DNA of 64,000 nucleotides from Winogradskyella sp. PG-2 (GTDB lineage: Bacteria; Bacteroidota; Bacteroidia; Flavobacteriales; Flavobacteriaceae): contig NZ_AP014583.1 in the NCBI RefSeq assembly GCF_000828715.1, positions 866,001 to 930,000 on the forward strand, in the 5' to 3' direction. The notes below the pieces were generated by a model. It was not told the DNA's origin. It searched no databases and saw only the letters and a list, made by a program, of their open reading frames with translations. Each line of letters opens with the position of its first letter. The first letter of the stretch is position 1. The translations under genes were made by a program, and so were the position numbers. This document shows positions 2,637-40,659 of this stretch, piece after piece.

Positions 2637-2653
2637 CTATACAAAAAACATAC
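2637..2653 (+). promoter_or_regulatory. 17-bp direct-repeat operator, site 1
   Basis: Reads CTATACAAAAAACATAC on the plus strand, two ATAC cores exactly 11 bp apart, ending about 60 bp upstream of the receptor ATG. It differs from site 4 by one base. Direct repeats with an 11-bp period and an A/T-rich spacer resemble OmpR/PhoB-type sites; the binding protein is unknown. Confidence 0.5.
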
Positions 2654-2795
2654 AATTCAATAAATAACCTTAAATATTATAGATATAATAATACAAAACT
2701 CTTTATTTTATTGATATAACAAGGTTAATCCTAGCTTAACAATTGTTTAACAATTACTCTAAAAAACCTCTAGAAATGGGCTTTACAAAGGATTT

Positions 2796-2823
2796 GTATA
2801 GGCTTTGTATGGGCTTTGTATAG
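2796..2823 (-). promoter_or_regulatory. triple direct-repeat operator, site 2
   Basis: On the minus strand three units in tandem read CTATACAAAGC, CCATACAAAGC and CTATAC, with ATAC cores at 2821-2818, 2810-2807 and 2799-2796, an exact 11-bp period twice over. It lies between the regulator stop and the receptor gene, about 220 bp upstream of the receptor start. It shares the consensus of sites 1, 3, 4 and 5. Confidence 0.55.
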
Positions 2824-2847
2824 TTGAAATTTAAAAACGTATAGGTG

Positions 2848-3354
2848 TTATATCTCTAAAATATAATCTGCAAGACTTTGTTTATGGTCTAACTTCATTT
2901 TTTTTCTCAAGCGGTATCGTTTTACTTCAACACTTTTATGTGAGATATTTAATAGAGGAGCAATCTCTTTTGAGGACAAATTTAATCTTATATACGCACA
3001 AAGTCTCAAATCATTTGGGGTAATTGTAGGATGAATTGATTTTATTTTTTTCATAAAATCTTTATCAACATTATTAAAGGCCTCTTCAAATAGTTTCCAA
3101 TCCCCTGTATTATTTATGCTAGAATTAATCGTCTTTACAACTCTTTTTACATCAGTTAATGATTTACTTCGTATTAATTCATCTTTAATTTTATTTAGCA
3201 GTTCATTACGTTTAACTATACTCATTGTTGCTGTTCCCAACTCTCTATTTTTATTTTCAATATCAAGTTTTAAATTTTCATTTTTAAACTCTATGACTTG
3301 TCGTTGATTTTGTAATTGCTCTAATTCTAACTCTCTCTGCTTTTTTTCAATCAA
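2848..3354 (-). CDS. C-terminal part of a LuxR-HTH regulator (split by frameshift)
   Basis: A 168-residue piece starting at a TTG that overlaps the stop of the upstream reading frame (TTGA). Residues 1-60 are a charged coiled coil rich in E, K, Q and N (IEKKQRELELEQLQNQ). The C-terminal 60-65 residues form a LuxR/GerE-type helix-turn-helix (TPNDLRLCAYIRLNLSSKEI...SHKSVEVKRYRLRKKM). In flavobacteria this block normally follows directly on the membrane segment of a propeller/Y_Y_Y sensor, and the upstream frame ends exactly there. I therefore read it as the 3' part of one gene cut by the loss of one A in an A-run. TTG initiation by coupling to the TGA stop is possible but unusual. If made alone it would be a cytoplasmic DNA-binding protein without its sensor. 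Confidence 0.75.
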   Translation of the reverse strand: MIEKKQRELELEQLQNQRQVIEFKNENLKLDIENKNRELGTATMSIVKRNELLNKIKDELIRSKSLTDVKRVVKTINSSINNTGDWKLFEEAFNNVDKDFMKKIKSIHPTITPNDLRLCAYIRLNLSSKEIAPLLNISHKSVEVKRYRLRKKMKLDHKQSLADYILEI

Positions 3355-5642
3355 TTTTTGTTTTCCCTTTTATAATATTTGTTATTAAAATATTGTATTA
3401 AAAAAATTAAAGCTAAGCCTAATAGCACGTAAAATATTATAGCAACTGTGTGCAAATACCATGGTTTTTCAATTGAAAACTCATAAGACGCTATATTATT
3501 AGATTGCTCACCACTCGATAAAGCTTTAACTTCAAACTTATAACTACCATGAGGCAGATTCTCTATGTAAGTTTGAGACTCTGATGACCAATTACTCCAT
3601 TTGTCATAGAACCCTAATAGTCTATATTTATATTTTGTAGCAGAAAACTTGTTATAATCCGTGACACTATACCTAAAAAGAATACTGTTGCTTTTATAAT
3701 CAAGTTCTATAGGTTTATTAATATTTACTAAGACAAACTCATCATGCAAGGATCTATATGAAACTTTATCTATACCTATACTCTTAGAACTCTGTTTATG
3801 TTTATCTAAATCTATTGTGAGATACCCATCAGCTGTACCAACTAAATATTTATTATCTGCAAGGCTTAATATATTTTCATAACCAACCTTACTATTTCTT
3901 AATTGATTTGGTATAGGTATTTTATTGATTTTTGGTTCTTCTGATAGTTTACCAGGTTCAACAAAAATTATATCACTTTCAGAAAAACACCAGAGTCGAT
4001 TGTTGTTATCATCATAGATTAACTTACCCGAAACATAGCTATCACCTTCTATGATTGAACTCAAGGTTGAGTCCTTATAAAATATTGCTTGTGGTTTATT
4101 ATAAATATATACACCACCTCTATTACTATATAAAATTGAATTTTGATATTTAATTATACTAGATTTTGGACCTTGGTCAATACCAAGTTTCTCATAATTC
4201 ATAATTTTTTTATATTCTGAACTTATATTAAGCTTATACACACCTTTATATTCATGGCTTATCAGTAATTGATTTGACTCTATAAAATCCAAATACCTTG
4301 AAGAAATATTAAATCCGTCTATTTTATTTCTATAATTCCATTTTTCGTTTTTTTTCTCAAGTATACTTAAACCTTTATAGTTTCCTTGAAGCAAAAGATT
4401 AGGCTTATCTTTAATCTCTTTTATTGCCCATGTACCTATATCTCCTTTTATAAGGTTTGCTTTACCATTTTTTACAATAAATGTTCCTTTGTCGTGACCA
4501 CAAAAGATCTCACCTTTTAAATAATTTAAACTCCATACCTGACCTTTTGTACCTTCAATAAAATTAAAATTTGAACCTTCACCATATCTCTTAAAAAAAA
4601 GACCTTGATTACTTCCTAAGTATAAATAATTATCAACCTTAATTGATGTATATATAGTTCCTAAAACCCCCTGTTTATCTTTATAGATTAGATAAGGTGA
4701 ATCTAGATTCATAATATTAATTCCGTTATTTAAACCTAACCAAATATTCCCTTTATTATCTTCTAAGAGTGACAATACTGTATTGTTACTTAGTCCATCA
4801 GATTTATTTATTTTTAAAATTTTCTTCCCGTCGCTACTGAGTTGAATTATACCTTCTGAGATAGTACCAAAAAGAAAACTGCCATCACTAAGCCTTATAC
4901 TATTGTATATACTTAAGCCTTCAAGAGCTTTGTTCGCATTGGAATTCCATATAGAAATTACGCCTTCTGAATAAATGAACAGACCTCGTTCTTTTGTCAA
5001 CAGCAATAAATCATTATCAATACTATAAATATTTATTATTTCATTATTACTAAATTTATCTTCAGGTATTACTAGCCTTTCACTACCATTCTGAATTTCA
5101 TAAATCCCATATCCCTCTTTCTGAAAATAAATTGTCTCATTTGTCTTAAAAATTTTATTAATTCTATGTCTTGAATCAATAATTTTAAAACTATCAGCAT
5201 TCACATTATAAATGTATATTCTATCTAATGATTGAAATAATATATAATCTTCAACGCCTACAATATCCCAAAATTCTTCATCTTCTTTAATTTTAAAATC
5301 TTTATCTGAAGTTAGTGACTTATAAGTTAAACCACCTAAATTATCTTTACCCCAATAACCAAAATCCATATAACTACCAGAGTAGATTTTGTCATTAATG
5401 ACACATACTGATCTTAGTATAGACTGATTTGGTGTTGGAAAGAGCTCCCATCTGGCACTATTATAACTAAGTAATCCTTTATTATTAGCAAAATAAATAA
5501 CACCATCTCGATCTTGAGATATAGACCAATTTTGATCTTCGGCCATATAATCTTGAGGTGTAAAAACTTGAATAGGTGGAACCTCTTGCGATTGTATTAA
5601 TAAAGCAAATGAAAAAATGAAAACGGTAAAAAAAAATTTCAT
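3351..5642 (-). CDS. propeller/Y_Y_Y sensor, N-terminal part of a split LuxR-type regulator
   Basis: Periplasmic sensor half of a one-piece regulator. I chose ATG 5642 because it opens directly on a signal peptide (MKFFFTVFIFSFALLIQSQ); the longer upstream extension looks non-coding. Residues 20-620 form repeated two-component-regulator propeller blades (for example IWLGLNNGINIM, LVGTADGYLT). A triple-tyrosine Y_Y_Y domain follows near 630-720 (ATKYKYRLLGFYDKWS), then one transmembrane helix and the tail NNKYYKREN. The frame then hits TGA. The family normally continues with KQKLIEKKQREL and an HTH, and exactly that is present in the -1 frame. Such regulators usually control an adjacent susC/susD locus, here the receptor downstream. 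Upstream lie two TATACAAAGTA half sites. Whether the break is real, phase-variable or an assembly error cannot be decided from the text. Confidence 0.85.
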   Translation of the reverse strand: MKFFFTVFIFSFALLIQSQEVPPIQVFTPQDYMAEDQNWSISQDRDGVIYFANNKGLLSYNSARWELFPTPNQSILRSVCVINDKIYSGSYMDFGYWGKDNLGGLTYKSLTSDKDFKIKEDEEFWDIVGVEDYILFQSLDRIYIYNVNADSFKIIDSRHRINKIFKTNETIYFQKEGYGIYEIQNGSERLVIPEDKFSNNEIINIYSIDNDLLLLTKERGLFIYSEGVISIWNSNANKALEGLSIYNSIRLSDGSFLFGTISEGIIQLSSDGKKILKINKSDGLSNNTVLSLLEDNKGNIWLGLNNGINIMNLDSPYLIYKDKQGVLGTIYTSIKVDNYLYLGSNQGLFFKRYGEGSNFNFIEGTKGQVWSLNYLKGEIFCGHDKGTFIVKNGKANLIKGDIGTWAIKEIKDKPNLLLQGNYKGLSILEKKNEKWNYRNKIDGFNISSRYLDFIESNQLLISHEYKGVYKLNISSEYKKIMNYEKLGIDQGPKSSIIKYQNSILYSNRGGVYIYNKPQAIFYKDSTLSSIIEGDSYVSGKLIYDDNNNRLWCFSESDIIFVEPGKLSEEPKINKIPIPNQLRNSKVGYENILSLADNKYLVGTADGYLTIDLDKHKQSSKSIGIDKVSYRSLHDEFVLVNINKPIELDYKSNSILFRYSVTDYNKFSATKYKYRLLGFYDKWSNWSSESQTYIENLPHGSYKFEVKALSSGEQSNNIASYEFSIEKPWYLHTVAIIFYVLLGLALIFLIQYFNNKYYKRENKN
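3354..3368 (-). other. apparent frameshift site in the regulator gene
   Basis: On the minus strand the sequence is AGG GAA AAC AAA AAT TGA in the sensor frame. Adding one A to the first A-run gives AGG GAA AAA CAA AAA TTG, that is R-E-K-Q-K-L, and joins the two frames into one protein of about 930 residues with the family's usual domain order. No standard slippery heptamer (X XXY YYZ) is present in the zero frame. Confidence 0.65.
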
Positions 5643-5970
5643 TATATTGATTAATTGATTAATTACAGTAAAGTTCAGAAAATCAAGAGACAATAATACC
5701 ACAACAATTATGTTAAGCTACTAATCTAAGTAAATATAAGTAAATATATAGACTCTTAGAATTATTGTAGTGCTGAAGTATACAAAGTACAATTCAAAAA
5801 ACAAAAAAGTAAACGTAATTTTTGGCTTTTATCTATACAAAGTATGATCCGTTTTTTTAGCTAGATAATTAAATTTATCGGTTAGCTTAAAAAACAAAAG
5901 CACCAAATAATAAGATATTTGATGCTTAACTAAAGATCCCTACATCTAAAGTTTGTTTTTTACATGGTTT
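5643..5970. promoter_or_regulatory. intergenic region between the sensor gene and the S74 gene
   Basis: This region should hold the regulator's promoter. Two copies of TATACAAAGTA occur at about 5780-5790 and 5834-5844. Each is a half site of the repeat operator followed by an inverted GTA(T), without the 11-bp direct partner. Next to the S74 gene it contains that gene's terminator. No coding frame is apparent. Confidence 0.4.
5888..5927 (-). terminator. rho-independent terminator of the S74 protein gene
   Basis: On the minus strand a 12-bp stem, AAGCATCAAATA with TATTTGGTGCTT (one G-U pair), has a 6-base loop and is followed by TTGTTTTTT. It lies about 45 bp beyond the stop of the S74-domain gene. 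Confidence 0.8.
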
Positions 5971-8001
5971 TTAGTTGTCAACTCTGTTTTTTATTATTTT
6001 TTCTAATGCTTCTAATCGCTTAAGTATTGTTTCATTCTCTACTTTCAATCTTTCATTTTCTTTCTGAAGTTTTTCTATAATAACTTGTTGCTCTTGCACA
6101 GCTTTAACTGTCATAGGGATAAAATCATTATAACGGACACCATACATACCATTATCATCTATTGAAATGATACCATTATTTGGATCTCCTGCATTTATAA
6201 AAGCTTCTTCTATTTCTTGAGCAATAAATCCGTATTCTGTTTTTTTATTCGGGTCATTCTTTCTTACATAAGACACTGGCCTCAATGTTTTAATAAAATC
6301 TAATCCAAAGGTAGAATTTGAAATGTTTTCTTTCCATCTTCTATCAGAGGTTGCAGTCCAACCTACTTGAACGTTAGCAACTGTAATAGCAGCGTTACCA
6401 ATTCTTATTTGGTTATCACTAGCAGCAGCTGGAACCTGTGCTTGAAAACCAATGGCAATATTATTATTACCAGTTGTTGCATTACTTGCAGCTTGATAGC
6501 CTATATAAGTATTATTATCACCACTACTTAAACCTCCAGCTACTCTATAACCAACACCTGTATTACCACTTCCAGCATTAAGACGATACATAGCCTCTGA
6601 CCCAATCCCTGTGTTTTGTTGTCCAGCAGCCATATCTTCTAATGCTAATTGACCAACAGCCGTATTATTTATACCTGCACTAGTTCCTCTACTCATAGCA
6701 CCTTTACCAATTCCTGTATTAAAATTACCGGTATTGTTTCTGCCCGATTCAGCTCCTAAAAACGTATTTTGGACCATTGCCGAGTTACCGTTTTGCATTG
6801 AAAAATAACCTATAGCAACGTTCAAATTTGCTGCACTATTATTTAATTGTGATAATGCCTGATAACCTATTACTGTATTATTTGGGCTTGATGAATTAGC
6901 TCTTAAAGCCTGATAACCAATGCCAATATTATTACCTGCTGCATTACTTAACATAGCCTCATAGCCAATTGCGATACTACTAGACCCTCCAGTACTAGCC
7001 GCATTAGCATTCCAACCAATACCAATATTTGCAGATCCTGTATTAGCATTTAGTGCATTAAAACCAATTGCTATATTTTGATTTCCACCTGTATTTGAAA
7101 CAAGCGCATTTGTACCAACTGCTACGTTATCACCTCCTCCTACATTTGCGCCTAGGGCTTGAGAACCTATCGCAACATTATCATCTCCATTTGTATTTGC
7201 GTCCAAAGCTTGCAGCCCAACAGCAATATTGTTTGATGCGGTATTAGCTAACAATGCGTTAACACCAATAGCTATATTGTTACTCCCGCCATTAGCAAGT
7301 TGTGCATTAGAGCCAATGCCTATGTTGTATTCTCCTGCCACGTTATTACCTAAAGCATTAGAACCAAGCGCAGTATTAAAGCGTCCGGTTGTATTATTCA
7401 ACATTGCACTTGTACCAACGGCTGTATTAAATTCGCCAGCAAAACTTGTACCATCGCCATTATTGGCTGCTAAAGCTGAACTTCCAATTGCTACATTTCC
7501 TTCTGCAACCGTATTTAGAGCTAAAGCATTTACACCAAATGCAGTTGTTGTTGAAGCTGTATTAATATTTGCAGATAATAGTCCAAAACTTGTACTTGCT
7601 GTACCAATTCTTCCAGCAGAAAGATTATTCCTTCTAAATGCCACATCTACATTATTAACTGTACCCATAAAATTTGTTCCATCCACAATATCTGCATTCC
7701 CAAGAATAGACCACCCTGTTGATGTACCTAATCTAATCCATGGACCTGTTGCTGTACTGAGATAATAATAACCAGGTGCTACATCTCCAGCAGTAGCAGT
7801 ATTATAAACAATTTCTGATACTGTTGGTGTAGCAACTGTAACTGTAGTAGTATTGGTTAAGGCTACTCTAGGTATTAAAAGACCTTCAGATGCTGAAGTA
7901 ATATCTAATGCCGCCTGAGGGTTTGAAGTACCAATACCCACTTGTGAATTTAACAACAGAGATAAAAACATAAGCAATAAAGTAAAAACACCCGATTTCA
8001 T
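5971..8001 (-). CDS. secreted repeat protein with a C-terminal S74 (endosialidase-type) chaperone domain
   Basis: Surface or secreted fibre-like protein. ATG 8001 is chosen over a TTG two codons earlier because it opens directly on the signal peptide (MKSGVFTLLLMFLSLLLNSQ). The N-terminus (VGIGTSNPQAALDI) is common to flavobacterial surface proteins. About residues 120-530 hold some fifteen repeats of 20-27 residues around NxAIGxxAL, as in trimeric beta-helical heads. The C-terminal 125 residues are a Peptidase_S74 intramolecular chaperone starting SDRRWKENI; Ser552 and Lys557 have the S-x4-K spacing of the self-cleaving endosialidase dyad. A final coiled coil (EKLQKENERLKVENE) fits trimerisation. 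By family, the domain assembles the fibre and then cuts itself off. The gene stands alone with its own terminator. Its ligand is unknown; it is not phage-associated here. Confidence 0.85.
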   Translation of the reverse strand: MKSGVFTLLLMFLSLLLNSQVGIGTSNPQAALDITSASEGLLIPRVALTNTTTVTVATPTVSEIVYNTATAGDVAPGYYYLSTATGPWIRLGTSTGWSILGNADIVDGTNFMGTVNNVDVAFRRNNLSAGRIGTASTSFGLLSANINTASTTTAFGVNALALNTVAEGNVAIGSSALAANNGDGTSFAGEFNTAVGTSAMLNNTTGRFNTALGSNALGNNVAGEYNIGIGSNAQLANGGSNNIAIGVNALLANTASNNIAVGLQALDANTNGDDNVAIGSQALGANVGGGDNVAVGTNALVSNTGGNQNIAIGFNALNANTGSANIGIGWNANAASTGGSSSIAIGYEAMLSNAAGNNIGIGYQALRANSSSPNNTVIGYQALSQLNNSAANLNVAIGYFSMQNGNSAMVQNTFLGAESGRNNTGNFNTGIGKGAMSRGTSAGINNTAVGQLALEDMAAGQQNTGIGSEAMYRLNAGSGNTGVGYRVAGGLSSGDNNTYIGYQAASNATTGNNNIAIGFQAQVPAAASDNQIRIGNAAITVANVQVGWTATSDRRWKENISNSTFGLDFIKTLRPVSYVRKNDPNKKTEYGFIAQEIEEAFINAGDPNNGIISIDDNGMYGVRYNDFIPMTVKAVQEQQVIIEKLQKENERLKVENETILKRLEALEKIIKNRVDN

Positions 8002-8524
8002 AAGCAATTATATTTACTGTAATAATAATCTATTATTTCTTACAAAAAGTGAAATTACACCATATAAAATGCATACAATTAGTAGTCTAACAAACAAATA
8101 ATTTTAAAACACCTATACAATCACCATACATATAGTATTATTGAACTAAACTTGTATTGATAAGAATTTGATTCAATTTTTAAGTGTTCACATTAAGAAT
8201 CTTAATAAATGTAAATAGTACGTTACTCAGAAAGGTCAGAAAAATAGATACCTAAACATTTATTATACCTCAAATGTACCCTACAACAATTTGCGAAAAT
8301 AATCTTCTTTTTTAATTTTTTTTTGACATCGGAATAAACCGTATACCATTATACTAATTTATAAGTTTAATAACGAACTTATTTGTGATTTTAGTTGAAA
8401 CATCCTACATTCGGTAAAAAATTGTATACCTTAAATTCTCAAAAGAAACCTTTAGCTGTAGATCAATATAACTAATTCTTTTATTGGGATAAAACAAACT
8501 TTTTCAATTAAATTCTAATTCCAT
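8002..8524. promoter_or_regulatory. divergent intergenic region between the S74 and WbqC-like genes
   Basis: About 520 bp, strongly AT-rich, without a convincing coding frame on either strand. It must hold the promoters of both flanking genes. Visible features are operator site 3 (8113-8129), an isolated GCATACAATT half site at 8071-8080, and two GTATACC copies near 8341 and 8424. TTGACA at about 8323 has no suitably spaced -10 element. Confidence 0.4.
8113..8129 (+). promoter_or_regulatory. 17-bp direct-repeat operator, site 3
   Basis: Reads CTATACAATCACCATAC on the plus strand, ATAC cores 11 bp apart. It is about 110 bp upstream of the S74 gene start and about 400 bp upstream of the WbqC-like gene. 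Its left flank AACAC is the same as at site 5. Confidence 0.5.
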
Positions 8525-9208: not shown

Positions 9209-9528
9209 TAATCCTAAACTAATTAGGGCTAAATTCTTTTGATTTTAATAAAACCTTTCTCTTGTATGGTTTTTGTATAGTTATCAAAATCATATTATCG
9301 ACAAATGGTATATTATCAAAGCTTTTATGAAACATCATCCAATAAAAAAGGATTACATTTAAAAATCAGTTTTACTTAAGGAATTCTATATTCTTATTGC
9401 TCAATCATTACTAATATAAAGATTATATGAAGAAGGTTTTTTTAGTAATAGTATTAAACCTTTTAGAATGAGATTATGTTGGTAGAATTAATTCTAATAA
9501 AAAATAACAAAACAATAATAGGTATACT
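9209..9528. promoter_or_regulatory. intergenic region upstream of the wza-wzc operon
   Basis: 320 bp without a coding frame. Just after the WbqC-like stop there is a weak hairpin (CCTAA, 5-base loop, TTAGG, near 9213-9227) that may be a poor terminator. Operator site 4 lies at 9264-9280, about 250 bp before the Wza-like start. I found no clear -7/-33 pair. Confidence 0.4.
9264..9280 (-). promoter_or_regulatory. 17-bp direct-repeat operator, site 4
   Basis: Reads CTATACAAAAACCATAC on the minus strand, ATAC cores 11 bp apart. It lies upstream of the polysaccharide export operon and is almost identical to site 1. Confidence 0.5.
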
Positions 9529-10317
9529 ATGTACTTAAATAAAAAAATAATTTTGAAAGAAATAAAAATATCTGAACTAAGAGATTGGTTTATAATTTTA
9601 ATTACAATATTACTTACAGGATGCGCTTCATCAAATAAGATTAATTATTTTAAGAAAAATGATAAGTTAGTCCTAAAGGAAGATATCACTAATTTTCAGC
9701 CAACCATCCAATATGCTGATATGCTAAATATTAATATTTCTTCTATTGAGCCCGAACTTGCTGCTCCTTATAATTCTTATGAAATACAGGAGAATAGGCT
9801 AGTTAGACAAATTCCATATATCGTTACTGCAGATGGCGATATTAATTTTCCTGTTTTAGGTAGGATCATGGTGGTAGGTTTAACAACTAGAGAAGTTACC
9901 GATAAGCTTTATCAAATGTTATCAAAATACTTAAATAATCCTTCAGTATCGGTGCAACTTGTTAACTTCAAAATATCTGTCTTAGGAGAAGTAAGGTCCC
10001 CAGGAAGTTATACTATTTTGAATGAGAGAATTACAATTTTGGAAGCTATTGCGTTAGCAGGAGATTTAACTATATATGGTAAGCGTAAACCCGTGACTTT
10101 GATTAGAGAGCAGAATGGTAAACGTGAGTTTATCCACATCGATTTAACTGACAAAGCTCTTTTTAATTCACCCTATTATTATTTGTCTCAAAATGATATT
10201 CTATATATTGAAGCTAATAAAACAAGGGTTAATTCTTCTAAAGTAGGACCAAATACAACAATTTTAATATCAACACTTTCAATTTTAATATCCTTAGCAG
10301 CTATTCTGACCAATTAA
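9529..10317 (+). CDS. Wza-like polysaccharide export lipoprotein
   Basis: Outer-membrane export protein for capsule or exopolysaccharide. It has a lipobox LLTGC near residue 34, so the mature protein should be lipid-anchored. A Poly_export domain follows at about residues 60-150 (YADMLNINISS ... ADGDINFPVLGRI), then an SLBB domain at about 150-235 (VLGEVRSPGSYTI ... EAIALAGDL). The C-terminus has a hydrophobic helix of about 20 residues (TILISTLSILISLAAIL), matching the membrane-crossing C-terminal helix of Wza. At 262 residues it is shorter than enteric Wza (about 380), as is usual in Bacteroidetes. It is followed after 5 bp by the Wzc-like kinase; together they form the envelope-spanning export machine for the polymer made by the minus-strand operon. 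Confidence 0.9.
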   Translation: MYLNKKIILKEIKISELRDWFIILITILLTGCASSNKINYFKKNDKLVLKEDITNFQPTIQYADMLNINISSIEPELAAPYNSYEIQENRLVRQIPYIVTADGDINFPVLGRIMVVGLTTREVTDKLYQMLSKYLNNPSVSVQLVNFKISVLGEVRSPGSYTILNERITILEAIALAGDLTIYGKRKPVTLIREQNGKREFIHIDLTDKALFNSPYYYLSQNDILYIEANKTRVNSSKVGPNTTILISTLSILISLAAILTN

Positions 10318-10322
10318 TAAAA

Positions 10323-12632
10323 ATGAAAAATAATAAAAATCATAAAAATAATGATCCAGATCATCAAAAATTAGATCTTAGAAATGCGCTTAAGATATAT
10401 TTAGCATATTGGAAATGGTTTATTATTAGTGTCTGTATTGCAATAATTTTTGCTTTTATCTATTTACATTTTTCCTCACCAATTTATGAAGTGTCTTCGA
10501 CTATCTTAATTAATGACAATGCTGATAATGGAAATACAAACTCAGAAATTTCTGTATTTGAAGACTTAGGGCTATTTGCAGGCCCTAAAACTTCTTTAGA
10601 CACAGAAATTGGGGTTTTAAAATCTAAATCGTTAATAGAAAGGGTTGTCAAAGAACTAGAATTAAACATCTCATATTATATTAAAACTGATGTAAAATAT
10701 AAGGAACTATACAAAAATGAGATTCCTTTTACTTTAAACTTCTTTATGCCCGACAGTTCGTTCAATAATTTGAGTGAAGTATTTTTCGTAAAAGCTAAAT
10801 CTCCTACAGAATTTGTTTTATTCTCTGAAGATGACACCAAAATATGTGAAGGCTCTTTTGGACAGTTAATAAGTTGTGATTTTGGTGAATTAGTTATAAC
10901 ACCAAAAGATTTAGGCACTTTAAAAACAAATCAGTCTGTATTAGTAAAAATAAGTTCTATAGAAGAAGTTGCAATAGCTTATAAAAAGCGAATTAAAATT
11001 AGTGCAGACGCGCCAAAATCAAATCTCTTAACACTTTCATTGCAAGATGGTATCAGAATAAAGGCAAGAGCTATTTTAGATAGTCTAATTACCTATTACA
11101 ATGCAGATGCAATAGCATATAAAACTCAATTATCTGAAGATACTGATAAATTTATTGATAATAGAATAGTTGATATATTAGAAGAGTTAACTAGCTTTGA
11201 TGAGGGTGTAGAAACCTATAAAGTTGATAATAAATTAAGTAACATTGATTCTGAGGCAAACTTGGTATTAGAATCCAATGCGTCAGTTGCAAGCCAGATC
11301 GTAGAGCTTAATGCGCAATTACAACTAACCAACTATCTAATCACATATTTAAATAATAACAAAAATGATTTGATTCCACCGAATCTAGGTTTAGCCAACG
11401 AAAATGCCAACCAAAATGTCATTCGTTTTAACAATCTTTTACTTGACAAAAAACGTTTATTAAAAGGTGCAAATGAAGAAAATCCCATTATTCTAAACCT
11501 AAATGATCAGATTTTAAGTTTAAGAACAAGCATTGAACAAGATTTAAGTAACACAAGATCTTCATTAAGCTTTTCCATAAATCAATTAAGGCAGCAGGAA
11601 AATGAATTAGTTACAAAAATTGCAGAAAACCCTAAGAAACAAAGAGCTATTAGAGATATAGAACGACAACAAGAGATTTTTGAAACTGTTTATCTATACT
11701 TACTTCAGAAAAGAGAAGAAAACTCAATTTCATTAGCTGTTACCACACCATATGCAAAAATTATTGATAAAGCCTACGGGAGTTCCATACCAGTAGCTCC
11801 AAATAAAAAAGTCATATTTTTAATTGCGCTTATAGTTGGGTTACTAATTCCTTTTGTATTAGTTTATTTAAGATTAATATTTGACAATAAAGTAAACACA
11901 TTAAAGACTCTCGAAAAAAACCTTGAAATACCCTCATTAGGAGAAATTCCAAAATTAAAGTCGAATCATCAAGTTATTAGTTTAGACGATAAGCTTAAGA
12001 AAGGTTCAGAGTCATTCCGACTTTTAAGAACCAATTTAAATCACTTATTACCAGATTCAAAAAACGAAGGTCAAGCTATTATTATTTCTTCAACATCAAA
12101 AAATGAAGGCAAATCATTTATTTCATTAAATCTTGCTAGTTCTTTGGCCATCTTAAATAAACGCGTTCTAATAATAGATGCCGATGTTAGAAATCCAAAA
12201 TCTGGTGTTTCCAGATTTACAAAGGGTCAACAAAAAATAGGTTTAACTCAATTTTTATCTCAAGAAAATATTAACCTGAAAGATCTTATAAATCAGAATG
12301 AAAAGATAAATGTAGATATTATTGAATCTGGACATTTGCCAAAAAAATCTCAAGAGTTATTCAGTGACGTCAAGTTTGAAGAAATTTTATCGTTTGCTAA
12401 AAAAAATTACGACTATGTCATTGTAGATACACCAGCTATTAATACCACAACAGACACATTGCTAATAGGACAACTAGCAGATATTTTTATCTATGTTATA
12501 AAAGCAAACTATTTAGATAAGGATAAGCTCGAAATTCCTAGAAGGTTACATCAAACAAATAAATTAAAAAACATGGTATCTCTATTAAATTATTCCAATC
12601 CAAAGAGAGTAAATAGAGTTGGTTACTATTAG
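10323..12632 (+). CDS. Wzc-like polysaccharide co-polymerase and BY-type tyrosine kinase
   Basis: Inner-membrane chain-length regulator and bacterial tyrosine kinase. Residues 20-130 hold the Wzz domain with a first transmembrane helix (WKWFIISVCIAIIFAFIYLHF). A long coiled periplasmic part follows, with a second helix near 500 (KVIFLIALIVGLLIPFVLVYL). The cytoplasmic kinase shows Walker A (SSTSKNEGKS), Walker A' (VLIIDADVRNP) and Walker B (VIVDTPA). The tyrosine-rich tail is very short: the protein ends in NRVGYY, whereas many relatives carry several spaced tyrosines. It is coupled to the Wza-like gene by a 5-bp spacing. In this family cycles of phosphorylation control polymer length and export. 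Confidence 0.92.
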   Translation: MKNNKNHKNNDPDHQKLDLRNALKIYLAYWKWFIISVCIAIIFAFIYLHFSSPIYEVSSTILINDNADNGNTNSEISVFEDLGLFAGPKTSLDTEIGVLKSKSLIERVVKELELNISYYIKTDVKYKELYKNEIPFTLNFFMPDSSFNNLSEVFFVKAKSPTEFVLFSEDDTKICEGSFGQLISCDFGELVITPKDLGTLKTNQSVLVKISSIEEVAIAYKKRIKISADAPKSNLLTLSLQDGIRIKARAILDSLITYYNADAIAYKTQLSEDTDKFIDNRIVDILEELTSFDEGVETYKVDNKLSNIDSEANLVLESNASVASQIVELNAQLQLTNYLITYLNNNKNDLIPPNLGLANENANQNVIRFNNLLLDKKRLLKGANEENPIILNLNDQILSLRTSIEQDLSNTRSSLSFSINQLRQQENELVTKIAENPKKQRAIRDIERQQEIFETVYLYLLQKREENSISLAVTTPYAKIIDKAYGSSIPVAPNKKVIFLIALIVGLLIPFVLVYLRLIFDNKVNTLKTLEKNLEIPSLGEIPKLKSNHQVISLDDKLKKGSESFRLLRTNLNHLLPDSKNEGQAIIISSTSKNEGKSFISLNLASSLAILNKRVLIIDADVRNPKSGVSRFTKGQQKIGLTQFLSQENINLKDLINQNEKINVDIIESGHLPKKSQELFSDVKFEEILSFAKKNYDYVIVDTPAINTTTDTLLIGQLADIFIYVIKANYLDKDKLEIPRRLHQTNKLKNMVSLLNYSNPKRVNRVGYY

Positions 12633-12743
12633 TTAATAAGATAACTAAAAGAATTGTTGGTCAAAAAAATGACTAAAATAGTTTTAAGGAATGTACCTAT
12701 ATAATTAACATAAACTGATTGCTGATAGAAAGATCAAATCCAT

Positions 12744-13634: not shown

Positions 13635-13700
13635 AATGTATTATCTACTTAAGACCAACATTAACTAAGTAGAATAGCAAATAAAGAAATAATAAAAATC

Positions 13701-14510: not shown

Positions 14511-14553
14511 TATTTCAATACTACCCTAAAGTTGTTTTATTAAAAATATAGTT

Positions 14554-24870: not shown

Positions 24871-24877
24871 AGGCTTT

Positions 24878-29443: not shown

Positions 29444-29458
29444 ATTATTGCTTTAGCT

Positions 29459-30502: not shown

Positions 30503-30514
30503 GTATTATCTTAC

Positions 30515-32840: not shown

Positions 32841-32843
32841 TAT

Positions 32844-34730: not shown

Positions 34731-35490
34731 TTATGTCTTTTTTTAATGACTTTATAAGTCCTTCATTTCTAATAATTTGATCATTCATTTTGGTCAAATT
34801 ATGCGCTTCTATATAATCTGTATATTCTAACCAAGTTTTTTCGGTACCTAGCTCAAGAATTAGATGCTCTATCAGATCAAAATCTCTTGATTCATCTACT
34901 GTCATTCTTATATGAGAAAAGTCTTGTTTACAATCGTAATTAATACTCCTAAAAATGTTGCCACCTCTTACATCACTATTATTTATGATATATGGTGTAA
35001 CATGTTCTAATTCTGAAACTAAAGTTGCATTTTTCCAAGCTTTCTCTAAAGCCAAAAATTTGAATACCTCAACATCTTGTCCATCAGGAAAATGTTCTAT
35101 TAAACCATTTGACACATAGTCATAGTTATGGTTTTGGGCGAACTCTATTACCTCGTCAAGTAATTGAGGATCAAGCAATGGACAATCAGATGTTACTCTT
35201 ACTATCCAATCTGCATTTTCGTCCTTTACAGCGTGATAAAAGCGATCCAACACATTTTCTTCCGAACCTCTGAAGCTTTTATAATCCCATTCTATAGCAT
35301 TATTATAAATGATAGCGTCTTTATCATTAGTAGTTGTGGCTACTACAATCTCATCTATTCTTACAGACTTGGAAATTCTATCTAAATGTATTTGCAATAA
35401 GGATTTACCATTAACTTCCTTGAGTACTTTGCCAGGTAGCCTAGTACTGCCTGTCCGCGCTTGGGTCACTAATATTGTTCTTAATTCCAT
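34723..35490 (-). CDS. SpsF/PseF-like cytidylyltransferase
   Basis: 255 residues. The start TILVTQARTGSTRLPGKVLKE is the SpsF/acylneuraminate cytidylyltransferase signature, with VVATTTNDKD, SFRGSEENVLDRFYHAV and WIVRVTSDCPLLDP following. It should activate the nonulosonic acid as its CMP sugar. SpsF-type enzymes are shorter and more divergent than NeuA. The C-terminal 50 residues are a charged helix. It overlaps its neighbours by 10 bp (aldo/keto reductase) and 8 bp (aminotransferase), so the three are translationally linked. It is the only CMP-sugar synthase in the locus. Confidence 0.85.
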   Translation of the reverse strand: MELRTILVTQARTGSTRLPGKVLKEVNGKSLLQIHLDRISKSVRIDEIVVATTTNDKDAIIYNNAIEWDYKSFRGSEENVLDRFYHAVKDENADWIVRVTSDCPLLDPQLLDEVIEFAQNHNYDYVSNGLIEHFPDGQDVEVFKFLALEKAWKNATLVSELEHVTPYIINNSDVRGGNIFRSINYDCKQDFSHIRMTVDESRDFDLIEHLILELGTEKTWLEYTDYIEAHNLTKMNDQIIRNEGLIKSLKKDING

Positions 35491-36359
35491 AGCGAAGGGT
35501 TTAATAAATTAATATCAGAAACCTTTATATTGTTAATCTCTTGTACAATATCTTGGCCAATTGTTGGGTTTAATACCGAGATATTATTTACAAGTTGTTC
35601 TCTTGAGTCTACACCTATAAGTACATTATCTATTGATTTTTGATGAATACAATAATTCAAAGCTAACTCTGCTACTGAAGATTTTCTATTCTTAGTAATA
35701 TTAGATAATTGCATTAATTCGGTTTTAAGTCGTCTAACAGTTTGATGATCTGAATTTACATCCTTAAAAAATAAGCCTTGTAAAAGTGCTGATCTTGTGT
35801 GTATAATTTTTCCTTTGGCTTTGGCTTTGGCTATGATATCACCTCTTAAATTTGAATTATCAAAAAGATTGAAAGGCAATTGAATGATATCTACCTGCTC
35901 ATTTATTATGACTTCTTCTATCTCTTCATTATTATAAACCGACACTCCAACATATTTTATTTTCCCACTCGCTTTTAATTGTATTAGACTATTAAAGTTG
36001 TTAATATTCTCTTTGTAACTAGAGAAACTATGAAATAGCAAAGCGTGTAATTGACGGACCTTTAAATCATTGAGATAGCGATCTACCTTATCTTTAATTT
36101 CAGTATCAAATTGATGTGGCAATTTTGTAATGATTTGAAATAATTTAGTTGGATTTTTTTTATGAAAAGATCCTATAACCTCATGTGCATTTCCATAGGC
36201 TTCTGCAGAATCTAACATGGTAATACCGTTGTCATAAGCATGATCAAAAATTGCATGGCTATCTTCTAAAGACACCTTACCTATAGTGTTATTAATACCA
36301 TAAGCTAAGCCCATTTGAACGGTTCCCAAAATCAATTTATTATTTAAAGTCTTCGACAT
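35481..36359 (-). CDS. aldo/keto reductase
   Basis: 292 residues of the AKR superfamily, TIM barrel with LILGTVQMGLAYGINN at the start, MLDSAEAYGNAHEVIG (catalytic D and Y), KLPHQF (lysine strand) and LHALLFHSFSSY (histidine). GVSVYNNEEIEEVI and IDIIQLPFNLFD-like strands follow. NAD(P)H-dependent reduction or oxidation of a sugar intermediate is expected. AKRs between PseC and the cytidylyltransferase occur in related clusters, but the step is not known. It overlaps the GNAT stop by 20 bp and the cytidylyltransferase start by 10 bp. Confidence 0.87.
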   Translation of the reverse strand: MSKTLNNKLILGTVQMGLAYGINNTIGKVSLEDSHAIFDHAYDNGITMLDSAEAYGNAHEVIGSFHKKNPTKLFQIITKLPHQFDTEIKDKVDRYLNDLKVRQLHALLFHSFSSYKENINNFNSLIQLKASGKIKYVGVSVYNNEEIEEVIINEQVDIIQLPFNLFDNSNLRGDIIAKAKAKGKIIHTRSALLQGLFFKDVNSDHQTVRRLKTELMQLSNITKNRKSSVAELALNYCIHQKSIDNVLIGVDSREQLVNNISVLNPTIGQDIVQEINNIKVSDINLLNPSLWN

Positions 36360-36873
36360 CTAGTGACATATTTAATGAGTTACAAAGTTTATTGTTATAA
36401 ACACCTATATCCCTCGTTACTCCATCTATTTTAAATCCTATATTTTTGTATAGCTCTACAGCTTTATTATTATCCTCTATTACTCCTAGTTTGACCTTAG
36501 ATAATTTAATTTCATTAAAACAATAATCTAAAATTCTTAGTGTTGCCTCTTTGCCATATCCTTTTCCCCAATTTGTTTTGTCTCCCATTAATATCCCATA
36601 GTCACCAAAATTGGTTTTATAGTCTATAGGATCAATTTTTATATTGCCTATATGTTTTTTTGTGCTTTTTAAATGAATAGCCCAAAAAAATATCTCGTTT
36701 TTATATTGCTCTTCAACATATGCCTTTAATAATTCTAGTGTATAATTTCCTCTTGTTTCTATATACATATTGACTTCGGGATCGTTTATCCAACTCACAT
36801 ATTCATTAGAAATATGCTCATTAGAAACCCTTTTAAAAGTCAAACGTTCAGATTCAAGATCAATATTATTCAT
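36340..36873 (-). CDS. GNAT-family acetyltransferase (RimJ/RimL type)
   Basis: 177 residues. Motifs are LESERLTFKRVSNEHISNEYVSWINDPEVNMY at the start, the acetyl-CoA loop NWGKGYGKEATLRILDY near residue 100 and LGVIEDNNKAVELYKNIGFKIDG near 133. It directly follows PseC (8-bp overlap), the order expected for the enzyme that acetylates the 4-amino group made by PseC. I regard it as the better PseH candidate of the two GNATs. Confidence 0.85.
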   Translation of the reverse strand: MNNIDLESERLTFKRVSNEHISNEYVSWINDPEVNMYIETRGNYTLELLKAYVEEQYKNEIFFWAIHLKSTKKHIGNIKIDPIDYKTNFGDYGILMGDKTNWGKGYGKEATLRILDYCFNEIKLSKVKLGVIEDNNKAVELYKNIGFKIDGVTRDIGVYNNKLCNSLNMSLDVEDFK

Positions 36874-38047
36874 TATAAAACATGTTTATTTTTTCAATAA
36901 CATATGCCTGTTCTTCACCTGTTAATGTGGGATACATTGGTAAACTGATACAATGCTTATAATAATTTTCAGCATTAGGAAAATCACCTTGTTTCCATCC
37001 GAATTTTTGATAATACGGCATTAAATGGCATGGTATATAATGAATCTGAGCATAGATATTATTTCGCCTTAAATATTCATATAAACCTAATCGATCTTCT
37101 ACTTCAATAACATAAAGATGATAGGCATGCCCATCAACAACATCAGACTGTCCTTTTATAAACTGCTTATTTTTAAAAGCATTAAAATATTTTGATGCTA
37201 TTTCTCTTCTTTTAGAAACGCCCTCATTAGCTCTACTAAGTTGACTCAACCCTAAAGCTGCTTGAAAATCTGTTATGCGATAATTATATCCAAGGTTTTG
37301 CATTTCCATATACCAACCAGGATATTCATCTATACCGCCTGCTAGCTCTATAGAATTTTGATATGCATTATTATCTTTAACAATACCATGAGTTCTAAAC
37401 TGCTTTAGTTTTTCGTAAAGTTGTTTATCGTTTGTAGTAATCATACCTCCCTCACCAGAAGCAATATGTTTTACAGGATGAAAAGAAAAAATTGATAAAT
37501 CCGCATAGCTTCCGTTTCCACACTTTACTACATTATTTTGATTATTTTTAAAGTAACCACCAGGCGCATGACATGCGTCTTCGATAATCCATAGATTATA
37601 CTCATCTGCTAAAACTCTAAACTCTTCTAAGTTATGAGCTCTACCAGCAAAATCAACTGGTATTATACCCTTATAAGTACCTATTGGAGATTGTTCTAAT
37701 AATTGTCTTACCTTATGTATATCCAACAAGTACGTTTCTGGATCTATATCGGAAAAAACAACCTCTCCACCACAATAGCGAACACAATTTGCTGAAGCAG
37801 CAAATGTTATTGGCGTAGTAATAACTTTATCCCCTTCTTTCACATCTAAAGCCATTGTACATAGATGTAAAGCTGCTGTTCCATTGGCCAAAGCAACCGC
37901 ATACTTGCAACCAACATAATTTGCAAAAGCCTCTTCAAATTCTGCTATTTTTGGTCCCTGGGTTAAATAGTCTGAAGTCAGTGTTTTTAATACTTCCTGT
38001 ATATCCTCATCGGTTATATGTTGTCTTCCGTACGGTATCGCTTTCAT
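36866..38047 (-). CDS. pseC: UDP-4-amino-4,6-dideoxy-N-acetyl-beta-L-altrosamine transaminase (PseC)
   Basis: 393 residues, DegT/DnrJ/EryC1 family of PLP enzymes. Key segments are IPYGRQHITDEDIQEVLKTL at the start, CKYAVALANGTAALHL, GDKVITTPITFAASANCV, IIEDACHAPGG (PLP-binding Asp), SIFSFHPVKHIASGEGGMI (Schiff-base Lys near residue 190) and NYRITDFQAALGLSQL. These match PseC closely. It aminates C4 of the keto sugar made by PseB. Its ATG shares one base with the PseB stop (TAATG). Confidence 0.93.
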   Translation of the reverse strand: MKAIPYGRQHITDEDIQEVLKTLTSDYLTQGPKIAEFEEAFANYVGCKYAVALANGTAALHLCTMALDVKEGDKVITTPITFAASANCVRYCGGEVVFSDIDPETYLLDIHKVRQLLEQSPIGTYKGIIPVDFAGRAHNLEEFRVLADEYNLWIIEDACHAPGGYFKNNQNNVVKCGNGSYADLSIFSFHPVKHIASGEGGMITTNDKQLYEKLKQFRTHGIVKDNNAYQNSIELAGGIDEYPGWYMEMQNLGYNYRITDFQAALGLSQLSRANEGVSKRREIASKYFNAFKNKQFIKGQSDVVDGHAYHLYVIEVEDRLGLYEYLRRNNIYAQIHYIPCHLMPYYQKFGWKQGDFPNAENYYKHCISLPMYPTLTGEEQAYVIEKINMFYNE

Positions 38048-39060
38048 TACTCAACTTTAAAATTTGAATCAACATGTTTTTTAATCAAAGTACGTAGAGA
38101 TTCTACTGATTCCCATTCTGTATTCTTTCCTGAGTTATAAGCAAAGCCCTCAGGTACTAATTTTGCTTTAAAATTTGATATAAATTCATCCTTTTTCCAC
38201 ATTGGTGTTTGAGGCAAAATCACATAGTATTTACCAAGATCATAGGTAAAAAAAGCATCAGATGACGTAATCATTTCTTCATGAATTTTTTCACCAGGTC
38301 TAATACCAACAACTTTATGTTCGCAATTTGGTCCAATAGCATCAGCAACATCTGTAATCTTATATGATGGTATTTTAGGAATAAATATCTCCCCTCCCCA
38401 AGCAGATTTCATAGCGTGCATAACCATATCAACCCCACCCTGTAGTGAAATATTAAATCTGGTCATAGACTTTTCTGTAATTGGTAATATGCCTTCCTTC
38501 CTTTTCTTTAAGAAAAATGGTATAACCGATCCATTAGAACCCATTACATTGCCATATCTAACAACAGAAAATTTTATATTGTGTTTACCCCTTATGTTAT
38601 TTGCTGCAACAAATAATTTGTCTGAAGTAAGCTTTGTTGCACCATAAAGATTTATTGGTGCACATGCTTTATCAGTTGATAATGCAACTACATTTTGTAC
38701 ATTGGTTTGTAATGCGGCTTGTATAACATTTTCTGCTCCACCGACATTGGTTTTTACACATTCATCAGGGTTATATTCTGCAATATGAACATGTTTCATA
38801 GCTGCAGCGTGTATAACATAATCTACATCTCTAAATGCCCTTACAAGTCTTTCTCGATCTCTAACATCTCCAATAAAGAATCTTATCTGAGGAAATTTTG
38901 AAACTGGGTAGTCTTGTTCCATTAAATATTGTTTCTGCTCATCTCTCGAAAAGATGACTAGCTTTCTAACGCCAGGCCAATTCTGCAAGATATGCGCCGT
39001 AAGTGCTTTACCCAAAGAGCCTGTTCCACCCGTAATCAAAATTGATTTATTTTCTAACAT
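38047..39060 (-). CDS. pseB: UDP-N-acetylglucosamine 4,6-dehydratase, inverting (PseB)
   Basis: 337 residues. The Rossmann start is SILITGGTGSLGKALTAHIL; the active-site region reads VALSTDKACAPINLYGATK near residues 125-143, the PseB-type motif with STDKA and YGATK. IGDVRDRERL and HAAAMKHV are also family features. It removes water and inverts C5, giving UDP-2-acetamido-2,6-dideoxy-beta-L-arabino-hexos-4-ulose, the first step towards pseudaminic acid. The C-terminal part (GIRPGEKIHEEMI) is intact. It follows the initiating transferase by 66 bp. Confidence 0.94.
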   Translation of the reverse strand: MLENKSILITGGTGSLGKALTAHILQNWPGVRKLVIFSRDEQKQYLMEQDYPVSKFPQIRFFIGDVRDRERLVRAFRDVDYVIHAAAMKHVHIAEYNPDECVKTNVGGAENVIQAALQTNVQNVVALSTDKACAPINLYGATKLTSDKLFVAANNIRGKHNIKFSVVRYGNVMGSNGSVIPFFLKKRKEGILPITEKSMTRFNISLQGGVDMVMHAMKSAWGGEIFIPKIPSYKITDVADAIGPNCEHKVVGIRPGEKIHEEMITSSDAFFTYDLGKYYVILPQTPMWKKDEFISNFKAKLVPEGFAYNSGKNTEWESVESLRTLIKKHVDSNFKVE

Positions 39061-39126
39061 ATAATGTTACTAGTTTATTTTTAATAAGGCAAAACCTTAA
39101 TTAATTTCATTATTACGATTATAACT

Positions 39127-40236
39127 TTAGAATAAAAATTGAATAGCAGATACGAGGTATCTAAACCTATTTCCTTTTTCTATATTTCTTTTCAATTTAT
39201 AAAACACTATTAATAGTAATATGAATGCTAATAAGTAAAATCCTATCATTTCGAAGCTGCCATAACTCCTCGATAGAAAAATAAACACTGAGGCTAAGAT
39301 TAAGTTTAAAGAGCCTAAAAATAAGCTAGCTTTAAAATGACTTAAACCTGAATTTATTAGTACATGATGAATGTGATTATTATCTGCCTTAAAAGGACTA
39401 TTCTTGTTTATTAGACGTATACTGATAACCCTTATGATATCAAATAGAGGGATAAAAAAGATTGCAGCAATTATTATAAGTTTATTACTCGGTATAAAAG
39501 AAAATTCTTGAAATAGTTTCGAGTCTATTGACAAAAACTTAACTGATAAGAAGCCGATACAAAACCCTATGAATAATGACCCTGTATCTCCCATAAAAAT
39601 CTTCCTGTTTTTAGACAAATTGAAACGTATGTAACCAATAAGTATTCCTAGAAAGCAAAGACAAAGTAAAAAATAGAATTCTAAACCAAAAATTAGAAAC
39701 AAGAAACCATAAACACTAAATATTACTATACCAATGATTGAAGCTAACCCATCAATACCGTCAATCATATTAAATGAATTAATTATGGTTAAAATAATCA
39801 ATGTAACTAAAATGTAAGCTGCAAAGTCTGGTATTACACCAATTCCCATAAACCCACCCAAAGAACTTACTTTAAGACAGTTACAAAATAATATCATACC
39901 TATCGCTAGCACTTCACTTATTATTTTTGCTCTTGGCGTAGAAACTACCAAATCATCTTTGAGGCCAACAGCGAACATTAAACCGAGTGCAGCAATTAAG
40001 TTAATACCAACTCCAGTAGTGTCCCAAGGTTTTATTATAATAAGAACAAATATGACTGTTAGAAAAAACGAAACTCCTGCCATTGTGGGTGTAGATTCTA
40101 TGTGAGAACTTCTATGATCTGGACGATCAATTAAATCCATACTCTTAACAATCCATCTAATTTTGTTAATCAAAATGGTAACTATAAAAGCAGAACTCAA
40201 CAAAGTCACTGAAGCAACAATGTATAGGTTGTTCAT
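39127..40236 (-). CDS. WecA/MraY-type undecaprenyl-phosphate sugar-1-phosphate transferase
   Basis: Start ATG 40236 (MNNLYIVASVTLLSS) is preferred because it opens at the first membrane helix; an upstream in-frame start at 40311 would add 25 residues. About ten to eleven helices. Family motifs are LIDRPDHRSSHIESTPTMAG near residue 40, LMFAVGLKDDLV (DD metal site), NSFNMIDGIDGLASIIG (NxxNxxDGxDGL), IFMGDTGSLFIGF and DNNHIHHVLI (HIHH). It loads the first sugar phosphate onto undecaprenyl phosphate and so starts each repeat unit. It is the first gene of the minus-strand operon, with operator site 5 about 265 bp upstream. Confidence 0.9.
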   Translation of the reverse strand: MNNLYIVASVTLLSSAFIVTILINKIRWIVKSMDLIDRPDHRSSHIESTPTMAGVSFFLTVIFVLIIIKPWDTTGVGINLIAALGLMFAVGLKDDLVVSTPRAKIISEVLAIGMILFCNCLKVSSLGGFMGIGVIPDFAAYILVTLIILTIINSFNMIDGIDGLASIIGIVIFSVYGFLFLIFGLEFYFLLCLCFLGILIGYIRFNLSKNRKIFMGDTGSLFIGFCIGFLSVKFLSIDSKLFQEFSFIPSNKLIIIAAIFFIPLFDIIRVISIRLINKNSPFKADNNHIHHVLINSGLSHFKASLFLGSLNLILASVFIFLSRSYGSFEMIGFYLLAFILLLIVFYKLKRNIEKGNRFRYLVSAIQFLF

Positions 40237-40311
40237 AATGTAATTGGTTTGATTAATAGCAAAAAGTAACCTGAAAATGAAACAAATTACAACAATACGT
40301 ATCTGGTTCAC

Positions 40312-40659
40312 AACTCAATTTAACTTTCATTAATATACTACCTTTTTTATCGCTTTACTTCATTATCATTACTACAAATAGCATACAAAGAGTTGTTTTA
40401 GTCAAACCGTTTAATTAAGCAGACAAAATACTTATAACTCATGCGTTTATCTGTTTTTTTTCTTTTCATCATATATTGAACAATCCTATAATCTTAGTGT
40501 ATAGGTAAAGTATAGGTGTTTAAGTAGTGTCTTATTGTAAATTAAGTCAGAATTATCTGTATAAACTATTAATTATGACTAGAGAATTAAACTTTCATCG
40601 TAGAACTAATTGGAGCTAGTTTGATATTTAAATAAAGTATCGAGCCTATAAATTTATAA
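40312..40659. promoter_or_regulatory. promoter region of the 24-kb polysaccharide operon
   Basis: About 350 bp between the operon and the tRNA-Leu terminator, no coding frame. The operon promoter must lie here. Operator site 5 sits at 40499-40515 and a single GCATACAAAG half site at 40381-40390. No JUMPstart-like element could be recognised, and no NusG-like antiterminator gene (UpxY type) lies at the operon head. Confidence 0.45.
40499..40515 (-). promoter_or_regulatory. 17-bp direct-repeat operator, site 5
   Basis: Reads CTATACTTTACCTATAC on the minus strand; both halves carry CTATAC and the period is 11 bp. It lies upstream of the initiating transferase, in the leader of the long polysaccharide operon. 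The flank AACAC is the same as at site 3. Confidence 0.5.

What the first reader, a model, noticed from the sequence alone, without database searches (positions are those of the whole stretch)
2637..40515. Recurring 17-bp direct-repeat operator linking surface-polysaccharide and SusC genes
CTATAC followed by a second ATAC core exactly 11 bp downstream occurs in five intergenic places: 2637-2653 (+), 2796-2823 (-, triple), 8113-8129 (+), 9264-9280 (-) and 40499-40515 (-). The aligned consensus is CTATACAAAnmCCATAC. Sites lie upstream of the SusC-like receptor (two), between the S74 and WbqC-like genes, before wza-wzc, and in the leader of the 24-kb polysaccharide operon. I saw no such pair in the other intergenic regions I read, including those of the core genes at 43-64 kb. 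Spacing of one helical turn with A/T-rich linkers is typical of OmpR/PhoB-type dimers. The regulator is not identified; the split LuxR protein next door is one candidate, though LuxR-type sites are usually dyads. I infer a shared regulon.
Basis: partly seen in the sequence, partly recalled or inferred. Interest (0 to 1): 0.72.

Follow-up and report, generated by a model that had tools for sequence, protein, structure and literature searches.

The report
Conserved operator of laminarin-locus regulator
The repeated 17-letter DNA motif is a conserved control site, most likely bound by the sugar-sensing regulator encoded next to it, so that one signal (probably the algal sugar laminarin) may control both sugar-uptake genes and a surface-polysaccharide export operon.

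Summary
Five perfect CTATACN7ATAC pairs lie where stated (300 dinucleotide shuffles: mean 0.17, maximum 2). The narrower form CTATACWWWNMMYATAC occurs six times in the 3.81-Mb chromosome, all within 64 kb, against 0 for the reversed pattern. The sixth lies 23.6 kb left of the window, before the last gene of the same laminarin-type polysaccharide-utilisation locus (PUL). Sites are conserved between the SusR-like regulator and susC in 50 of 57 same-genus loci, before that secreted PUL gene and a separate GH16 gene, and before wza in both other genomes with this export locus, where it is far from the PUL. The distal site is an array of half-sites TGTNNNGG at 0/+11/+32 bp (one and two helical turns more): 45 of 57 genus loci, 15 of 20 other-genus orthologues, 13 of 14 loci of a paralogue with different half-site letters, 0 of 6 of a third group. 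Half-site cores vary with the regulator's recognition helix. Best reading: operators of the adjacent Reg_prop/Y_Y_Y/LuxR-HTH regulator, not an OmpR/PhoB protein. susC and wza are good targets; S74 and wecA rest on this genome alone. No binding was shown, and the regulator's frame is split here.

The parts
2637..2653 (+). susC-proximal operator, two half-sites 11 bp apart; in gene direction GTATGTTTTTTGTATAG, 59 bp before the susC ATG
   Evidence: conserved in same-genus loci
2597..2604 (-). putative -7 promoter box TAAGTTGC (TAnnTTGY type) of susC, 33-40 nt downstream of the proximal operator
   Evidence: SM5-type box described in PMC9723704 (passages); no start site mapped
2796..2844 (-). distal operator array: half-sites GTATAG 2796, GTATGG 2807, GTATAG 2818, GTATAG 2839 (read on +); the last three form the conserved 0/+11/+32 pattern
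1..2577 (-). SusC-like TonB-dependent receptor (cut by the window edge; genome 865476-868577)
   Evidence: Pfam Plug and CarbopepD_reg_2; SusD in the next gene
2848..3354 (-). LuxR/GerE HTH part (168 aa) of the SusR-like regulator
   Evidence: Pfam PF00196
3351..5642 (-). sensor part (763 aa) of the SusR-like regulator, Reg_prop and Y_Y_Y domains, in an overlapping frame
   Evidence: Pfam; one open frame in relatives
8113..8129 (+). operator-like site 105 bp before the S74 gene, same orientation to its gene as at susC
   Evidence: no orthologue to test
5971..8007 (-). Peptidase_S74-domain protein gene
   Evidence: Pfam
9264..9280 (-). operator-like site 248 bp before wza; in gene direction GTATGGTTTTTGTATAG
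   Evidence: identical 17-mer before wza in G011 and G034
9529..10317 (+). wza-type polysaccharide export gene, followed by the wzc-type gene at 10323-12632
   Evidence: Pfam Poly_export, Wzz
40499..40515 (-). operator-like site 187 bp before the wecA-like gene that starts the long polysaccharide operon; opposite orientation to its gene
   Evidence: not found in G011 or G034
39127..40311 (-). wecA-like glycosyltransferase gene (Glycos_transf_4)

Best explanation
The repeats are operators of the SusR-like membrane regulator encoded beside susC (periplasmic Reg_prop/Y_Y_Y sensor, one membrane segment judged by eye, cytoplasmic LuxR-type HTH). SHOWN by sequence comparison: the sites are conserved in relatives; they are built of half-sites one helical turn (11 bp) apart, with a third half-site 21 bp further in the distal array; the susC-proximal site stands at a fixed distance upstream of a -7-like box; the same site stands before other PUL-type genes and before wza; half-site letters differ between regulator subgroups together with the recognition helix. 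INFERRED: the regulator senses a laminarin fragment in the periplasm; its HTH domains bind as a co-linear dimer or trimer on one face of the DNA at about -61 to -45 and activate susC, the secreted end-of-PUL protein and wza-wzc; the distal array holds further regulator copies and may loop to, or cooperate with, the proximal site. The wecA and S74 sites may be recent additions or chance.
For: Conservation beside the regulator: at least one site in 50 of 57 loci, both in 46; narrow pattern 137 matches against 6 for the reversed control in 68 genomes, accounted for as 6 own, 70 in regulator-susC gaps, 61 elsewhere. Geometry 0/+11/+32 in 45 of 57, 15 of 20 and 13 of 14 loci. Different half-site cores beside different paralogues: TATR pair in 42 of 57 group 1 and 0 of 20 of groups 2 and 3; CG core in 10 of 14 and 5 of 6, and 0 of 77 others. 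Fixed -7-like box 32-34 nt downstream in 41 of 49. Targets: 13 of the 61 other matches before the T9SS-tailed PUL gene, 4 before GH16 genes, 2 before wza. No SusR-like gene in the 68 kb fetched around the two unlinked wza loci, so action in trans is implied.
Against: No binding or expression data. The regulator is split into two frames in this genome. Regulator and site co-occur (54 of 58 against 3 of 10 genomes), but both belong to one PUL. 7 of 57 loci have no weight-matrix match, though 52 of 57 have a looser 11-bp pair. Group 3 paralogues lack the 0/+11/+32 pattern (0 of 6). Outside the genus the exact 17-mer is only weakly above control (70 matches, 9 of them in G000 and G011, against 46, hand count), and in 32 distant loci an 11-bp repeat appears in only 3 (control gaps 4 of 128). 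39 of the 61 other matches are at a PBP gene start (19), coding (5) or before varied genes (15). Half-site and matrix were defined on the same loci.
Confidence: 0.8

Rival explanations
1. Only the PUL sites (susC pair and end-of-PUL gene) are functional; the wza, S74 and wecA sites are chance or remnants near the PUL.
For: wecA site not found in either relative with the locus; S74 site untestable; the export locus is in only 3 of 68 genomes, and the two others look alike here.
Against: The wza leader shares a 21-bp exact word covering the site with G011 and G034 (shuffles: mean about 10, maximum 14 and 16) while the rest has diverged, and there wza is far from the PUL. Of 30 wza-like loci scanned, only those three have the site.
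Confidence: 0.22
2. The binder is another protein (a global or OmpR/PhoB-type regulator) that happens to act on the PUL and the export operon.
For: The 61 matches outside the gap include some before unrelated genes. A LacI-family gene lies at the far end of the PUL.
Against: All 6 perfect sites in the chromosome lie in one 64-kb region. Half-site letters change with the adjacent paralogue. The repeats end at the regulator's own stop codon in the distal array. LacI operators are palindromes (recalled).
Confidence: 0.12
3. The inverted distal and proximal repeats act as RNA: they pair in the susC leader or a read-through transcript.
For: Distal and proximal repeats are in opposite orientation and partly complementary, on one transcribed strand.
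Against: The T9SS, GH16 and wza sites are single, with no such distal partner reported in the windows looked at. Fixed spacing to a -7-like box suggests an upstream DNA site. RNA folding was not run.
Confidence: 0.04

Closest known systems
SusR and SusR-like regulons of Bacteroides (Ravcheev et al. 2013, PMC3878776; passages and section 7 read)
   Same: Sensor-type membrane regulator beside susC/susD; predicted sites are direct repeats with spacing read as whole helical turns.
   Different: There the centres are 67 or 77 bp apart; here half-sites are 11 and 21 bp apart in arrays, with an inverted operator about 135 or 147 bp away.
HTCS (hybrid two-component) PUL regulators (same paper)
   Same: Direct-repeat sites at PUL promoters, two turns (21 bp on average) apart.
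   Different: HTCS have an AraC-type HTH and kinase parts; this protein has a LuxR-type HTH and no kinase was found by Pfam.
Laminarin PULs of Muricauda, Formosa and Polaribacter (PMC13188888, passages read)
   Same: GH17 and GH30 enzymes, and a first gene often annotated as LuxR regulator.
   Different: The passages name no operator or regulon for that gene; 'promoter' and 'SusR' occur 0 times in the text.

Membership tests
SusR-like regulator | Reg_prop and Y_Y_Y sensor plus C-terminal HTH | tested here: met
   Pfam Reg_prop, Y_Y_Y (763-aa part) and GerE (168-aa part); the two parts are in different frames here, one frame in relatives
SusR-like regulator | gene next to susC/susD | tested here: met
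   (Plug/CarbopepD_reg_2; SusD_RagB)
SusR-like regulator | predicted operator with centres 67 or 77 bp apart (PMC3878776) | tested here: not met
   11, 21 and about 135/147 bp instead; this was a prediction for Bacteroides, not a defining test of the protein
SusR-like regulator | ligand-dependent activation by a glucan fragment | not testable with these tools
   needs expression data
OmpR/PhoB-type regulon | linked OmpR/PhoB gene or known box | tested here: inconclusive
   No such gene among those scanned; not every gene of the region was scanned
Laminarin PUL | GH17, GH30 and GH16 with SusC/SusD | tested here: met
Laminarin PUL | growth on or induction by laminarin | not testable with these tools
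   substrate inferred from gene content

The most novel reading that the evidence does not exclude
SusR-like regulators of Flavobacteriaceae share an operator grammar: half-sites TGT-NNN-GG at 0/+11/+32 next to the regulator's own stop codon, facing an inverted two-half-site operator 13 or 14 turns away at the susC promoter (looping or a membrane-anchored multimer), with NNN read by a few recognition-helix residues (VEVKR with TAT/TTG, VETKR with TCG, GVETHR with ACG). In some marine species this code has captured a polysaccharide-export operon, so that sensing an algal storage glucan switches on surface polysaccharide.
Probability: 0.42. Interest if true: 0.78.

Novelty: new variant of a known kind. 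Interest (0 to 1): 0.62.

Why it matters
SusR was an early-characterised PUL regulator, yet in the papers found here its family's DNA sites are known only as predictions with a 67/77-bp spacing. This gives a compact operator with helical spacing that can be tested directly, a way to assign operators to regulator subgroups by sequence, and a concrete proposed link between laminarin sensing and surface-polysaccharide export in marine flavobacteria.

Tried and rejected
Genome scan with 3 mismatches: 423 matches against 375 in the control, too loose; its listing was cut.

Autoregulation as a general rule: matrix match upstream of the regulator in 1 of 56 genus loci and 5 of 20 other-genus loci (4 of these 71-85 bp away), none in the window. 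A background count in that call (30 in 27,861 bases) includes the very sites for which the loci were chosen and is not used.

A general 11-bp spacing in distant Bacteroidota loci: not supported beyond single cases; by eye L069 (Salegentibacter) has 0/11/32 and L077 (Pedobacter) an 11-bp pair.

Matches at the start of a 783-aa gene (19 of 61; one of them, L200, scanned as a penicillin-binding protein; one truncated at 367 aa, L226): the second half-site overlaps the start codon; not assigned.

Weight matrix: built from 88 sites found in the same gaps with CYATACN7ATAC, so its hit rates there are not independent.

The wecA leader alignment is poor and shows no shared site. Alignment A1 used unoriented coordinates and is void. 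The C-terminal part has no PDB match at E 0.01; the sensor part matches 3v9f and 4a2l weakly in pieces. No tree, structure model, RNA fold or homologous-protein search was run.

Checks made for it.
Full report
OBSERVATION. The five pairs exist as described. Exact CTATACN7ATAC occurs 5 times; 300 dinucleotide shuffles gave mean 0.17 and maximum 2, and of 25 gap lengths only N7 is enriched. In the whole chromosome (3,811,479 bases, one contig) the narrow form CTATACWWWNMMYATAC has 6 matches, all in 842,345-906,515, and none when read backwards. One mismatch gives 19 against 12, so weak matches are noise.

WHAT THE LOCUS IS. Left of the window lie SusD, three GH17 hits, GH30, GH16 and a GH2-like enzyme; the gene at the window edge is a SusC-type receptor. 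This resembles laminarin PULs of Muricauda, Formosa and Polaribacter, whose first gene is often annotated LuxR (PMC13188888, passages). The regulator beside susC has a Reg_prop/Y_Y_Y sensor and a LuxR/GerE HTH. Here it lies in two overlapping frames (763 and 168 aa). In one search, 99 of 197 genomes (window's own included) have a match at E <= 1e-50; the listed matches, apart from the window's own and one partial (463 aa), have one open frame of 925-991 aa. Whether the split is real or a sequencing error cannot be told. Right of it lie S74, WbqC, wza, wzc and a long polysaccharide operon that starts with a wecA-like gene.

CONSERVATION BESIDE THE REGULATOR. In the first 20 same-genus loci fetched, 20 have at least one site in the regulator-susC gap and 17 both: proximal CTATACAAAAAACATAC and, inverted, distal CTATACATTACCTATAC as commonest forms. 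I fetched 57 of the 58 same-genus loci with the orthologue, window included (G021 was not fetched): 46 have both orientations, 4 one, 7 none above the matrix threshold. Across 68 genomes the narrow pattern has 137 matches against 6 for the control: 6 in this genome, 70 in the other 56 gaps, 61 elsewhere. Regulator and site co-occur (54 of 58 against 3 of 10 genomes, Fisher p 3.4e-5; any match counted, absence meaning no match or only a ~30% paralogue). Both lie in one PUL, so this alone does not single out the binder. Outside the genus the exact pattern is weak: in 249 genomes 70 matches (9 of them in G000 and G011) against 46 in the control (hand count).

OTHER TARGETS. The 61 matches elsewhere fall, by hand, into: 13 before the T9SS-tailed PUL gene, 67-73 bp from its start; 4 before GH16-related genes on another contig than the regulator, 51-60 bp (two of the four scanned: both GH16 with T9SS tail); 2 before wza; 2 before a PUL glycosidase gene; 1 before the regulator; 19 at the start of a 783-aa gene; 5 inside genes; 15 before varied genes. 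Close relatives of this wza (62-65% identity; other hits 46% or less) and of wecA (59-60%) were found only in G011 and G034 of 68 genomes. There wza lies 0.6 Mb (G011) and 3.8 Mb along the contig (G034) from the regulator, the identical 17-mer stands about 210 bp before wza, and the longest exact word shared with our leader is 21 bp covering the site (shuffles: mean about 10, maximum 14 and 16). tblastn found no SusR-like gene in the 68 kb fetched around the two loci, nor a transcription factor among the five neighbours scanned in G011. Of 30 wza-like loci scanned, only G000, G011 and G034 have the site. No site was found before wecA in G011 or G034, and S74 has only partial matches elsewhere, so those two sites lack comparative support. 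G011 and G034 look alike here, so wza conservation covers at most two lineages.

GEOMETRY. In relatives a third half-site follows 21 bp after the distal pair, at the regulator's stop codon. Counting TGTNNNGG with at most 2 mismatches in 15 fixed positions, offsets 0/+11/+32 occur in 45 of 57 genus loci, 15 of 20 orthologues from other genera (one from another family), 13 of 14 loci of paralogue group 2 (about 40% identical) and 0 of 6 of group 3 (about 30%). The other 143 offset pairs average 0.71, 0.33, 0.07 and 0; the highest are 20 (for 11/34), 5, 5 and 0. Group 2 uses TGTCGTGG-like half-sites: triple in 12 of 14 by a looser motif; group 3 uses TGACGTA with an 11-bp pair in 6 of 6; reversed sequences of groups 1 and 2 give 0. 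The TATR pair is in 42 of 57 group-1 loci, 1 of 20 other-genus orthologues and 0 of 20 of groups 2 and 3; a CG-core half-site is in 10 of 14 and 5 of 6, and in 0 of the 77 others. The recognition helix changes in step: VEVKRY or VEIKRY, VETKRY, GVETHRY. These are few groups, not many independent events, and the half-site was defined on the same loci. The distance from proximal to distal site is 134-137 in 22 loci and 145-148 in 21, with single cases at 125, 132 and 170 and none at 138-144 (46 loci). Shared ancestry and register shifts in a tandem array can produce this as well as a helical-phase constraint.

PROMOTER. Aligned on the proximal site, 41 of 49 loci have a -7-like box 32-34 nt downstream by a loose expression that also accepts TAATATTAC-type forms; in the window it is TAAGTTGC. 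F. psychrophilum has a TAnnTTGY box (motif SM5) at -12 to -5 (PMC9723704, passages). If that applies, the operator spans about -61 to -45, upstream of RNA polymerase, as for an activator. No start site is mapped.

MECHANISM. The regulator most likely binds these arrays on one face of the helix and activates. Distal array and proximal operator face each other, which suits looping or a membrane-held multimer; that step is speculative.

RELATION TO WHAT IS KNOWN. Ravcheev et al. (PMC3878776, passages and section 7) predict for Bacteroides SusR-like proteins direct repeats with centres 67 or 77 bp apart, and for HTCS about 21 bp. The present operators share the direct-repeat, whole-turn principle but not the SusR distances. 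In my paper searches (open-licence PMC papers, mostly listings) I saw no other paper on SusR-family DNA sites and none on such sites in marine flavobacteria. Zobellia induces glycosyltransferase genes on laminarin and alginate (PMC5613140, passages), a loose parallel to the wza link.

VERDICT. A real, conserved operator family, most likely of the SusR-like regulator next door; firm for susC and the PUL end, good for wza, weak for S74 and wecA.

Noticed in passing
window 2848-5642 (-): The SusR-like regulator is split into two overlapping frames here, while the listed full-length relatives have one open frame; real break or sequencing error is open.
   Followed up: partly
L200, L203, L204 and 16 further loci, start of a 783-aa gene: 19 relatives carry GTATAG-N5-GTATAG straddling the start codon of a penicillin-binding-protein-like gene; chosen by pattern, so conservation is unproven.
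   Followed up: partly
window 5779 and 5834: Two copies of TATACAAAGTA, 55 bp (five times 11) apart, upstream of the regulator gene; group 3 paralogues also show a 55-bp step between half-sites.
   Followed up: no
L306 and L307, upstream of wza: Remnants similar to WbqC precede wza in G034 and G011, suggesting that the WbqC-wza order is old.
   Followed up: partly
genome 842482-845778 (L037:12482-15778): A 1098-aa FG-GAP/ASPIC-UnbV protein is a frequent neighbour of the T9SS-tailed PUL gene in the genus; role unknown.
   Followed up: no
L207, L221, L245: The motif stands before a large gene in three genomes whose regulator-susC gap has no matrix match; the one scanned (L207) has lectin and CHU_C domains.
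   Followed up: no
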